Below are positions 4,483-6,009 of a stretch of DNA of 6,009 nucleotides, in pieces. Both the position numbers and the translations under genes were made by a program. The DNA is from Pseudomonadota bacterium. Lineage in GTDB: Bacteria > Pseudomonadota > Gammaproteobacteria > Pseudomonadales > Halieaceae. Location: positions 1 through 6,009 of the forward strand of contig JAUVBI010000193.1 of NCBI GenBank assembly GCA_030591305.1, read 5' to 3'. The notes below the pieces were generated by a model that worked only from the letters and a program-made list of their open reading frames with translations, made no database searches and was not told the origin of the DNA. Each line of letters begins with the position of its first letter. The stretch's first letter is position 1.

Positions 4483-5373
4483 ATGAGCTGGTTGCAGTTG
4501 CGCCTGGACACCCGGCCAGATGAACTCGATACACTGGAAAAGCTTATGCTGGCCACTGGTTCGGTGGCCGTCACTCTGGAAGACAATGCCGACCAGCCCG
4601 TGCTGGAGCCCGGTGTGGGCAAAACTCCCCTGTGGCTGCAAACACGCCTTACCGGCCTGTACCGCGCCGACACCGACATGGACGCTGTTCTGGCCCATTT
4701 CCCCGAAACATTAATCAACACCGCCAACTACCGTGTGGAGATTCTCGAGGACAAGGACTGGGAACGCGAGTGGATGCAACATTACCAGCCCATGCAATTT
4801 GGCAAAGCATTCTGGGTTTGCCCAAGCTGGATAGAGCCTCCCGACCCCGCCGCCACCAACTTGCTGCTGGACCCGGGGCTCGCTTTCGGTACCGGCACCC
4901 ACCCCACCACTGCCCTGTGCCTGAGCGAAATTGCCGGCATGCCATTGCAGGGGCTCAGCGTTGTTGATTACGGTTGCGGCTCCGGCATTCTCGGTGTGGC
5001 GGCGCTACAGTTGGGTGCCGCCCAGGTGCTGGCTGTGGACAATGACCCCCAGGCCCTGGTAGCCACTGCCGATAATGCCGAGCGCAATGGTATCGAGCCG
5101 TCATCCTTAACCGTGGTTCTGCCGGAGAACGTTAACTTCGACATTTACACAGGCAAAGCCGAGCTGGTAATCGCCAACATTCTGGCGGGGCCGCTTGCCA
5201 GCTTGTCGGAGACCCTATTGTCACTCCTTAAACCGGGTGGACGCCTGTTGTTGTCTGGGCTACTGGAGAATCAGGCCGAGGACTTATGTGCCCACTATGC
5301 GTCGGATATTGAAATTTCGATTGCTGGGGAGAAGGATGGGTGGGTTTGTTTGCTGGGGGTTAAATCAGGGTAG
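4483..5373 (+). CDS. prmA: ribosomal protein L11 methyltransferase
   Basis: PrmA trimethylates ribosomal protein L11 using S-adenosylmethionine. The 296 residues (E. coli 293) comprise an N-terminal L11-recognition domain (about 1-60), a linker with EDKDWEREWM (89-98), and a class I methyltransferase domain. Diagnostic motifs are LDPGLAFGTGTHPTT (129-143), the SAM-binding VVDYGCGSGILG (160-171), the acidic site AVDNDP (184-189) and VIANILAGPL (229-238). The gap after accC is nine bases, and the AGG at 4472-4474, overlapping the accC stop, may serve as ribosome-binding site, suggesting translational coupling. The last 20 or so codons are rich in GGG, GTT and TTG compared with the rest of the gene. 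The stop lies only seven bases before the repeat pair, but the protein is not truncated. Confidence 0.97.
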   Translation: MSWLQLRLDTRPDELDTLEKLMLATGSVAVTLEDNADQPVLEPGVGKTPLWLQTRLTGLYRADTDMDAVLAHFPETLINTANYRVEILEDKDWEREWMQHYQPMQFGKAFWVCPSWIEPPDPAATNLLLDPGLAFGTGTHPTTALCLSEIAGMPLQGLSVVDYGCGSGILGVAALQLGAAQVLAVDNDPQALVATADNAERNGIEPSSLTVVLPENVNFDIYTGKAELVIANILAGPLASLSETLLSLLKPGGRLLLSGLLENQAEDLCAHYASDIEISIAGEKDGWVCLLGVKSG

Positions 5374-5380
5374 GTTAGCC

Positions 5381-5498
5381 GCAGACTGGGTGTTGTAGAG
5401 GTTTGCAGGGCACACCAAAAGACGCATCCATGCGGGGCTCGACCTCGGCCATCCATGGCCTCAGACGGCCCTGCAAACCTCTACAACACCCAGCCTGC
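5381..5498 (-). repeat. structured palindromic repeat, copy A
   Basis: A 26-bp perfect inverted repeat (5386-5411 with 5468-5493) bounds this element. Four more pairs lie beyond one mismatch (5381-5384 with 5495-5498). The 56-base interior holds two small palindromes with the same loop: GGCCATCCATGGCC (5447-5460) and CGCATCCATGCG (5423-5434). On the minus strand these read as hairpins with ATGGAT loops, so the whole would fold as a long stem carrying two short hairpins. The minus-strand core matches the core of copy B at 44 of 51 aligned bases, which sets the orientation. Measured from the outer CTGGG/CCCAG ends the element is 108 bp. No target-site duplication is visible. It starts seven bases after the prmA stop and could affect the 3' end of that transcript, though no T-tract follows. 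The family is not recognised. Confidence 0.85.
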
Positions 5499-5564
5499 TC
5501 AATCACTTCTTTGATTTATCTATCGCATACAAATTCACGTCCGAAAATCCAATGATAGGAGCAT

Positions 5565-5674
5565 CTGGAATGGTCTCTTGCCTTGTCAGGCCGTCTGAGG
5601 GCAAGGACGCCCGAAGCCGAGCGCCGCATGGATGCGTCTTTTCGCGTGTCTGACAAGGCAAGAGAGCATTTCAG
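5565..5674 (+). repeat. structured palindromic repeat, copy B
   Basis: This is the second copy of the repeat, inverted relative to copy A. Its arms include a 16-bp perfect inverted repeat (5574-5589 with 5650-5665), extended outward to 5565 and 5674 with two mismatches, giving 110 bp. The core carries CGTCTGAGG, then a hairpin GGGC-AAGGAC-GCCC (5599-5612), then CGC-ATGGAT-GCG (5625-5636) followed by TCTTTT, then GTGT before the right arm. The arms share little with those of copy A apart from CTGG at the outer end and TTG-CAG near the core, yet they remain self-complementary. The CGCATGGATGCG-TCTTTT portion resembles a very small intrinsic terminator in this orientation, but its stem is too short to call. 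No target-site duplication is seen. Confidence 0.82.
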
Positions 5675-5751
5675 GTGTGGTGCCCTACAAAGGAATTTCT
5701 ACATCAGTTAGCGTTGACTTAGCGCAAACATTGATGCTTTTTTGCACAGTT

Positions 5752-5792
5752 TTGCTTTCCCCCAAATGGGCTGTCGCGTATCATGGCGCCTC
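5752..5792 (+). promoter_or_regulatory. candidate promoter of dusB (dusB-fis operon) with GC-rich discriminator
   Basis: A -10 hexamer TATCAT (5779-5784, five of six consensus bases) is followed at once by GGCGCC and then TCTTTTTT. Initiation would fall near C5792, 32 bases before the dusB ATG. A GC-rich discriminator and initiation at C are known features of the stringently controlled E. coli dusB-fis promoter, and the same design appears to be used here. The -35 is poor: TTGCTT (5752-5757) is 21 bases upstream, longer than ideal, so the promoter may depend on an activator or on AT-rich upstream sequence. A TTGACT at 5714-5719 has no matching -10. Confidence 0.4.
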
Positions 5793-5823
5793 TTTTTTCG
5801 AGCAATGTTGCAAGCTGCTTTCC

Positions 5824-6009
5824 ATGCTAACAATCGGCACCTACAAACTGGAAAACCCTGTGATATTGGCCCCCATGGCTGGCGTCAGTGATTTGCCGTT
5901 TCGCCGCCTTTGCATAGCGTTTGGTGCGGGACTGGCAGTGGGGGAGATGATCAGCTGTAATCCCCAGTTACGCAATACACGCAAGACCCTGTTACGCAGC
6001 CGCCACGAC
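5824..6009 (+). CDS. dusB: tRNA-dihydrouridine synthase B, N-terminal part (runs off window)
   Basis: DusB reduces specific uridines in the tRNA D-loop region to dihydrouridine using FMN and NADPH. The first 62 residues are present. LENPVILAPMAGVSDLPFR (9-27) is the signature FMN-binding start of Dus proteins, and GAGLAVGEMISCNPQL (34-49) matches the DusB subgroup (E. coli GAGLTVSEMMSSNPQ, from memory). The catalytic cysteine and the rest of the TIM barrel and C-terminal domain lie beyond the right edge. The ATG at 5824 is chosen because the family begins just before this motif and no upstream in-frame start is seen. The ribosome-binding site is poor (CAAGCTGCTTTCC). The following gene is expected to be fis, but that is not in the window. 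Confidence 0.94.
   Translation, partial: MLTIGTYKLENPVILAPMAGVSDLPFRRLCIAFGAGLAVGEMISCNPQLRNTRKTLLRSRHD

What the first reader, a model, noticed from the sequence alone, without database searches (positions are those of the whole stretch)
5381..5674. Two copies of an unrecognised ~110-bp element with a conserved core and non-conserved but self-complementary arms
Copies A (108 bp, minus orientation) and B (110 bp, plus) share a core that is identical at 44 of 51 bases by hand alignment. The long outer arms differ almost completely between the copies, yet each arm pair is complementary (26 of 26 bp in A; 16 perfect plus a 9-position extension with two mismatches in B). Ordinary MITEs do the opposite: terminal repeats are conserved and the interior varies. 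Possible explanations are an element that inserts into existing palindromes, arms kept symmetric by template switching or conversion, or a structured RNA/ssDNA element in which only stem pairing matters. Only CTGG at the outer end and TTG-CAG near the core are shared by the arms.
Basis: partly seen in the sequence, partly recalled or inferred. Interest (0 to 1): 0.72.

Follow-up and report, generated by a model that had tools for sequence, protein, structure and literature searches.

The report
Dispersed RNA-like hairpins with hypervariable arms
Between two ordinary bacterial genes sits a pair of mirror-image hairpins, one of many such pairs in related genomes, whose small loops look like docking sites for the RNA-binding regulator CsrA while the long stem can have almost any sequence as long as its two sides still match.

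Summary
Window 5381-5498 (minus) and 5562-5677 (plus) are two hairpins with a shared core and unrelated, self-complementary arms. They are not unrecognised: both match Rfam RF01731, TwoAYGGAY, below its cut-off (E 1.1e-4 and 3.5e-4; 38.4 and 36.2 bits, cut-off 43). Relatives (nearest named PrmA: Halioglobus sp.) carry many copies. 53 of 56 neighbour pairs within 450 bp are inverted doublets in the same minus-plus order, so the unit is the doublet and the window holds one. The stem is 30 bp. On the strand with the ANGGA loops, imperfect stem pairs are G.T rather than A.C (92 v 11; 137 v 173 just outside), so a folded single strand, most likely RNA, is selected. In a young burst the closest copies differ by symmetric changes (7 v 0), which suggests arm-to-arm copying. 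Loops fit the CsrA/RsmA site. Mobility: the prmA-dusB spacer is 76-244 bp without a long palindrome in 21 of 26 measured relatives; one of 30 loci scanned has a doublet. CsrA binding, transcription and the mobilising enzyme are untested. New variant of a known kind.

The parts
5381..5498 (-). Hairpin A: 31-nt arms 5381-5411 / 5468-5498 around a 56-nt core
   Evidence: Inverted repeat I2, 97% complementary; fold z -9.22 on the minus strand; RF01731 38.4 bits, E 1.1e-4; R1 109.4 bits (A is one of the 19 sequences R1 was built from)
5447..5460 (-). Inner hairpin 1 of A, GGCC-AUGGAU-GGCC on the minus strand, inside a stem with a tandem G.A/A.G (CUGAGGCC / GGCCGAGG)
   Evidence: Read; paired in the RF01731 alignment; tandem GA column pattern
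5424..5433 (-). Inner hairpin 2 of A, GC-AUGGAU-GC
   Evidence: Read; RF01731 alignment
5499..5561 (.). Spacer between the two hairpins of the doublet
   Evidence: Gap between the R1 matches is 68 bp, close to the 66-75 bp of all 7 doublets listed for G014 and G034 and most for G018
5562..5677 (+). Hairpin B: 28-nt arms 5562-5589 / 5650-5677 around a 60-nt core
   Evidence: Inverted repeat I3, 89% complementary; fold z -8.13; RF01731 36.2 bits, E 3.5e-4; R1 100.3 bits (B is in R1's training set too)
5599..5612 (+). Inner hairpin 1 of B, GGGC-AAGGAC-GCCC (differs from A at the free loop positions and at a compensated stem pair)
   Evidence: Read
5626..5635 (+). Inner hairpin 2 of B, GC-AUGGAU-GC
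   Evidence: Read; RF01731 alignment
5374..5723 (.). Stretch between the prmA stop (5371-5373) and the conserved dusB-upstream part that relatives lack; outer ends uncertain. GTTAGC at 5374-5379 and 5707-5712 is a possible 6-bp target duplication (may be chance)
   Evidence: Compared by eye: spacers of relatives (L203, L204) resemble the window from about 5724 (GCAAACATTGATG..TTTTTTGCACAG)

Best explanation
The window holds one copy of a dispersed, non-coding, divergent doublet of TwoAYGGAY-like hairpins. Each hairpin is a 30-bp stem of almost free sequence topped by two small hairpins whose loops read ANGGA, the recognition site of CsrA/RsmA-type proteins. Shown: multicopy doublet architecture, fixed stem length, core and loop conservation, selection for pairing on the ANGGA strand, symmetric differences between the closest copies, and patchy presence at gene junctions. 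Inferred: (i) the folded strand is RNA made by read-through from neighbouring genes; because doublets are nearly always minus-plus, a transcript from either side carries one sense hairpin nearer its 3' end; (ii) each sense hairpin binds one CsrA dimer with its two loops, so the doublets act as dispersed CsrA/Rsm decoys or as CsrA-controlled 3' elements; (iii) the long stem is a sequence-indifferent scaffold whose two sides are rewritten from each other by template switching between the arms, with G.U-tolerant selection on top, so core and ends stay recognisable while arms drift apart; (iv) the units spread by transposition with an enzyme supplied in trans.
For: RF01731 matches, and published CsrA-motif matches in TwoAYGGAY with an outer stem 'not well conserved' (PMC4333381, passages). 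53 of 56 neighbour pairs minus-plus. In 19 aligned copies 97% of outer-stem cells pair and 26 of 30 pairs change on both sides. In both loops of those 19 copies C, A, G, G, A and G of C-A-N-G-G-A-N-G are invariant; in the larger set 147 of 158 first loops and 158 of 158 second loops read CA.GGA.G, with a search pattern that required C..GG..G. Core-only detection: 136 of 139 cores with enough flank have at least 18 of 24 Watson-Crick arm pairs; G.T 92 v A.C 11 at stem positions 3-21, 137 v 173 at 30-39. G010: 16 paralogue pairs with core identity of at least 94% have median arm identity 0.33. Young G035 burst: mean pairwise difference 0.32 in arms, 0.11 in the core, 0.44-0.47 in flanks; nearest-copy tree edges with at most 2 pair differences: 7 double Watson-Crick changes, 0 one-sided, at positions 0-21. 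CsrA found in 53 of 58 relatives, 9 of the 10 element-rich ones. 27 of 48 scored doublets between convergent genes.
Against: No transcription or CsrA-binding data. No CsrA found in element-bearing G003 (genome may be incomplete). CsrA is near-universal here, so its presence discriminates little. In G018, G034 and G035 arms of copies with similar cores are partly alike (median 0.50-0.79), so arm hypervariability is not uniform. No sigma-70-type promoter or terminator-like site at window 5300-5900, and only 5 of 162 copies have a terminator-like site within 90 nt after the sense hairpin. ssDNA folding would give the same G.T bias. The symmetric-change evidence rests on few events, one-sided changes rise with distance (29 v 18, 65 v 36), and singletons in 20 related copies are 6 symmetric v 5 one-sided. 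Elements at the same gene pair in different genomes are no more alike in core (0.72) than random cross-genome copies (0.73). R1 does not find the over-threshold TwoAYGGAY copies of four other genomes at E 1e-4.
Confidence: 0.55

Rival explanations
1. The hairpins are mainly ssDNA structures: transposition or replication signals (like attC sites or terminal hairpins) used as folded single strands, and the CsrA-like loops are a coincidence or bind a transposase.
For: Minus-plus doublets put one sense hairpin towards the 3' side of either strand; patchy insertion; the G.T bias fits ssDNA as well as RNA; in G035 12 of 34 copies have GGCACTTACTTTA-type repeats (up to 3 substitutions) on both sides, a MITE-like unit.
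Against: Second loops vary only at the two positions free in the CsrA site, first loops in 147 of 158 (consensus recalled); published CsrA-motif matches for the Rfam relative; no Y1 (HUH) transposase found in element-rich G001, G003, G017, G024, though the other six have one match each.
Confidence: 0.2
2. Bidirectional 3'-end elements (RNA end protection or factor-dependent termination) with no CsrA role.
For: 27 of 48 doublets between convergent genes; 42 of 54 gene ends facing convergent doublets lack an intrinsic-terminator-like site before the doublet.
Against: No T-run after the hairpins: terminator-like site in 5 of 162; does not explain the invariant GGA loops.
Confidence: 0.15
3. An old MITE family, now inert: the core is alike by descent, the arms only look special because they are old.
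For: Terminal repeat-like ends; 27 of 48 doublets in convergent spacers, where insertions are tolerated; a G035 burst with terminal repeats.
Against: Neutral decay would break arm pairing and give G.T equal to A.C; observed 92 v 11 in the stem. GGA columns invariant in 19 copies.
Confidence: 0.1

Closest known systems
TwoAYGGAY RNA (Rfam RF01731)
   Same: Long outer stem with poorly conserved sequence, two inner hairpins with AYGGAY-type loops, tandem G.A in one inner stem; over-threshold members in G216 and G326 also occur up to 9 times per genome (scoring cap 9) and as inverted doublets
   Different: Window copies score 38.4 and 36.2, below the cut-off of 43; our model R1 does not reach the over-threshold members; by eye, arms of the G216/G326 copies are much more alike than those of the window's relatives
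CsrB/CsrC/RsmX/Y/Z CsrA-sponge RNAs (named in PMC4333381, passages)
   Same: GGA in the loops of small hairpins, in pairs
   Different: Dispersed in tens of copies at gene junctions instead of one or a few dedicated sRNA genes (recalled); no promoter or terminator seen in the window; binding untested
REP/BIME elements and RAYT transposases (PMC2817692, listing and start of abstract)
   Same: Dispersed palindromes in alternating orientation between genes
   Different: 30-bp stem of free sequence plus a conserved core; no Y1 transposase found in 4 of 10 element-rich genomes
MITEs
   Same: Small, non-coding, multicopy, terminal repeat-like ends
   Different: Conserved centre, non-conserved arms; no consistent target duplication shown for the doublets
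attC sites of integrons; parvovirus terminal hairpins (recalled)
   Same: Structure kept while stem sequence is free; stem with two inner hairpins
   Different: Comparison from memory only; no integrase or replication gene was looked for

Membership tests
TwoAYGGAY (RF01731) | Score at or above the gathering cut-off (43 bits) | tested here: not met
   38.4 and 36.2 bits, E 1.1e-4 and 3.5e-4; one of 6 matches in G001 reaches 51.4
TwoAYGGAY (RF01731) | Two inner hairpins with AYGGAY-type loops inside one outer stem | tested here: met
   copy B loop 1 is AAGGAC, outside strict AYGGAY but within ANGGAY
TwoAYGGAY (RF01731) | Tandem G.A in an inner stem (PMC4333381) | tested here: met
   G.A / A.G in 16 of 19 copies, both window copies included; G-C or G.G with C-G in the other 3
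CsrA-binding RNA | ANGGA in hairpin loops closed by C-G | tested here: met
   Invariant loop columns in 19 copies; 147 of 158 first and 158 of 158 second loops CA.GGA.G (pattern required C..GG..G; 7 of 165 copies gave only one loop)
CsrA-binding RNA | Binds CsrA/RsmA | not testable with these tools
   CsrA gene found in 53 of 58 relatives
MITE | Terminal inverted repeats and target-site duplication | tested here: inconclusive
   End motif CCGG.CTACGAAG common but not universal; window GTTAGC repeat may be chance; G035 burst has terminal repeats in 12 of 34 copies
REP/BIME with RAYT | Y1_Tnp (PF01797) transposase in the genome | tested here: not met
   None in G001, G003, G017, G024; one match each in G010, G014, G018, G031, G034, G035 (genomes may be incomplete)
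Intrinsic terminator | Hairpin followed by a T-run | tested here: not met
   0 in window 5300-5900; 5 of 162 copies within 90 nt
attC site | R/L boxes and an integron integrase | not tested
   None

The most novel reading that the evidence does not exclude
The doublet is a minimal mobile element whose two T-shaped terminal hairpins (long stem plus two small hairpins, inverted at the two ends) fold as single strands at the 3' side of either strand and prime copying of one arm from the other during each round of movement or replication. Its arms are therefore rewritten symmetrically and become hypervariable, while the core that binds CsrA or a transposase stays fixed: a bacterial counterpart of hairpin-telomere replication, with CsrA-type loops tying its activity to the host's Csr system.
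Probability: 0.08. Interest if true: 0.85.

Novelty: new variant of a known kind. Interest (0 to 1): 0.5.

Why it matters
TwoAYGGAY was listed in 2010 and still called a family of unknown function in 2014. The data here recast a lineage of TwoAYGGAY-like hairpins, and by the same signs the over-threshold members in G216 and G326, as dispersed inverted doublets, give the stem of the lineage a measured length (30 bp) and a strand, and offer a natural case where symmetric change of palindrome arms can be counted. If the loops bind CsrA, a genome with tens of doublets would carry tens of extra dimer sites, which bears directly on how free CsrA is set.

Tried and rejected
Phage origin: 16 hits of an 18-position core pattern (17 fixed bases) in viral contigs lack, by eye, the rest of the core and the arms. 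Plasmids and phages: no blastn match to a 76-base core query at E 1e-3 and 1e-2. Intrinsic terminator: rejected. RAYT mobilisation: not required. Insertion into an existing palindrome: no inverted repeat above 12 pairs in the 21 short prmA-dusB spacers. Arms copied from elsewhere in the genome: no listed second match in G010 spans the arms of one G010 doublet, but that list was cut and few candidates were scored. Vertical inheritance at shared gene pairs: one search lists 25 cross-genome locus pairs with a matching flank, 15 with both; 12 of those 15 were compared (20 hairpin pairs; the 3 left out involve L078 or L075) and cores are no more alike than random, so preferred insertion sites or homogenisation remain open. 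MIR5084 and the other Rfam matches were dismissed as generic palindrome matches. Literature: 7 papers hold TwoAYGGAY (5 listed), passages of 4 seen; two wider searches and one on CsrA, sponge, MITE and hairpin showed nothing on dispersed TwoAYGGAY doublets in their listings; no other search was made, and the 2010 supplement could not be read.

Biases and dropped rows. R1 was built with arms, so copies found with it favour paired arms; re-detected copies from the core alone, but within loci mostly chosen by R1. The set chosen without arms is G001 (blastn with the window): one search lists 21 copies, two of them the window's own, one (L053) cut by a contig end, 18 others; 17 of these were aligned and pair, and L036's second copy pairs over the bases present. 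A copy in L037 was dropped there by the script's duplicate filter. Counts can include one hairpin on both strands (6 of 46 matches were such) and at most 150 candidates per genome were scored. Of the matches, one search left out 9 opposite-strand ones and two weak ones (L079:8526, L149:1073), each of which would have made a further minus-plus pair. In one search, 23 of 34 G035 copies were kept (same core length, core within 30% of a consensus), 3 more with unrelated arms were dropped. In one search, 48 of 53 doublets passed the gene score; no genome-wide baseline for convergent spacers was computed. Of 165 copies, one search used 164. Spacers include the dusB start codon; one search gives the lengths without it. 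One search found PrmA in 53 of 58 genomes, none in G001; only the best 30 loci were fetched.

Full report
What is there. The window runs dsbD-aroQ-accB-accC-prmA-(spacer)-dusB (ORFs; PrmA's name is borne out, the other gene names are recalled from the protein sequences). PrmA's closest named relative is from Halioglobus sp. (78% identity), with Halieaceae names further down the list. The 450-bp spacer between the prmA stop (5373) and the dusB start (5824) contains hairpin A on the minus strand (5381-5498) and hairpin B on the plus strand (5562-5677). The arms within each hairpin are 97% and 89% complementary and the cores pair with each other at 85%. Both fold far better than shuffles on the strand that carries ATGGAT.

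Identity. cmscan puts both copies in RF01731 TwoAYGGAY at E 1.1e-4 and 3.5e-4, below the curated cut-off. The core holds two small hairpins with ANGGAY loops, one of them with the tandem G.A noted for this family (PMC4333381, passages). The 2010 discovery paper's table rates it 'y' (probably) as an RNA and 'n' (probably not) as cis-regulatory (passage). Because the cut-off is not met and our model does not find the over-threshold members, I call it TwoAYGGAY-like, not a member.

Family. A core pattern hits one MAG only among the genome contigs (JADFVW01, 5 loci), and blastn finds some twenty copies there, each with its own arms. 20 of 58 genomes searched, that MAG (G001) included, carry the core (blastn E 1e-3), and R1 finds 17 to 120 matches at E 0.01 in each of 10 of them (both-strand duplicates and a scoring cap make these rough). 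RF01731 itself matches 17 of 274 genomes drawn from the class, 13 over the cut-off, 0 of 14 controls. In ten loci of G216 and G326 its over-threshold members form 5 close pairs: 4 minus-plus, and L186 plus-minus. No similar sequence was found in the plasmid and phage records at the limits used.

The unit is a doublet. Of 165 copies extracted, 56 neighbour pairs lie within 450 bp: 53 minus-plus, 2 plus-minus, 1 minus-minus. Gaps run from 51 to 437 bp, with a cluster at 60-75, and 68 in the window. 54 copies have no neighbour within reach. Outer ends often read CCGG.CTACGAAG, inner ends GAGG or GCAGG. 48 doublets could be placed between genes: 27 convergent, 18 tandem, 3 divergent (no baseline computed).

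The stem. Aligned outward from the core, Watson-Crick pairing stays high for 30 positions and then falls to background (117 of 164 at position 29, 52 of 164 at position 30). In 19 copies, 26 of 30 outer pairs change on both sides and 97% of cells pair; shuffled and slid controls are far lower for the structure as a whole. Detecting copies from the core alone (141 hits, 139 with flank, 136 with at least 18 of 24 Watson-Crick pairs), stem positions 3-21 hold 92 G.T and 11 A.C, positions 22-29 hold 111 and 23, and positions 30-39, outside the stem, 137 and 173. A double-strand process treats G.T and A.C alike, so pairing is selected in a single strand, the one with the ANGGA loops. RNA and ssDNA are not distinguished by this.

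How arms change. In G010, 16 pairs of copies with core identity of at least 94% have median arm identity of 0.33; in G018 and G035 such pairs are at 0.79 and 0.58. In G035 a younger burst lets arms be aligned: 23 copies, mean pairwise difference 0.32 in arms, 0.11 in the core, 0.44-0.47 in flanks; relative to the commonest pair there are 140 cells changed on both sides to another Watson-Crick pair, 21 G.T, 1 A.C, 9 other. On a nearest-copy tree, edges with at most 2 differing pairs carry 7 symmetric and 0 one-sided changes at positions 0-21; with at most 3, 11 v 2; at most 4, 13 v 4; at most 6, 29 v 18; at most 9, 65 v 36. Stepwise compensation predicts the reverse trend. Some symmetric changes (25 of the 65) are transversions that G.U intermediates cannot bridge. 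Among singletons of 20 related copies the count is 6 v 5, so the case is good, not closed. In the same 20 copies the three variable pairs of inner hairpin 1 and the one of hairpin 2 have matching counts on both sides.

Mobility. In the prmA-dusB spacer of relatives, 26 of 30 loci could be measured: 21 are 76-244 bp, 5 are 743-988 bp. R1 finds a doublet only in G010. None of the 21 short spacers holds an inverted repeat of more than 12 pairs, against 30 in the window, so a ready-made long palindrome at the target is not seen. In the ftsN-hslV-like spacer (names recalled), 10 genomes were examined: 7 have 75-157 bp and no R1 match, G014 and G018 have doublets with different arms, G035 a single hairpin. 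Among 109 element clusters, 15 cross-genome locus pairs match on both flanks; in the 12 compared, cores are no more alike (0.72) than random cross-genome copies (0.73), while paralogues are at 0.74-0.87. That fits repeated insertion at preferred sites, or homogenisation. In G035 12 of 34 copies have GGCACTTACTTTA-type repeats on both sides, a MITE that carries the hairpin. The mobilising enzyme is unknown; Y1 transposases were not found in 4 of the 10 element-rich genomes.

Function. In 19 copies the loops vary only at positions that the CsrA/RsmE consensus (recalled) leaves free; in the larger set 147 of 158 first loops and 158 of 158 second loops fit. CsrA genes are found in 53 of 58 relatives, but not in G003, which has the element. 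I therefore favour an RNA platform with two CsrA sites, transcribed by read-through, and mark binding, transcription and effect as untested.

Noticed in passing
L099 / L078 (G035), hslV-side spacer: A second, unrelated long palindrome (AGTACTGCAACCCGGAA ... TTCCGGGTTGCAGTACT) with a ~130-nt interior lies next to the G035 hairpin; not identified.
   Followed up: no
L079:8526-8612 (G010): A copy that seems to have lost the stretch between the two inner hairpins, as if fused at the shared GCCATGGA; arms still paired.
   Followed up: no
L221 (G010), prmA-dusB spacer of 760 bp: Near-repeats of a GCGTGCCATGCGGGG type before the doublet, possibly another dispersed repeat.
   Followed up: no
L038, L046, L048, L054 (G001): Some copies lie inside a further, longer palindrome beyond the 30-bp stem, separated by a short unpaired patch.
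   Followed up: partly
L077, L078, L160-L163 (G035): MITE-like units of mostly 178-189 bp with GAATGGCACTTACTTTA-type terminal repeats that carry a single TwoAYGGAY-like hairpin; several have possible 7-10 bp direct repeats outside, judged by eye.
   Followed up: partly
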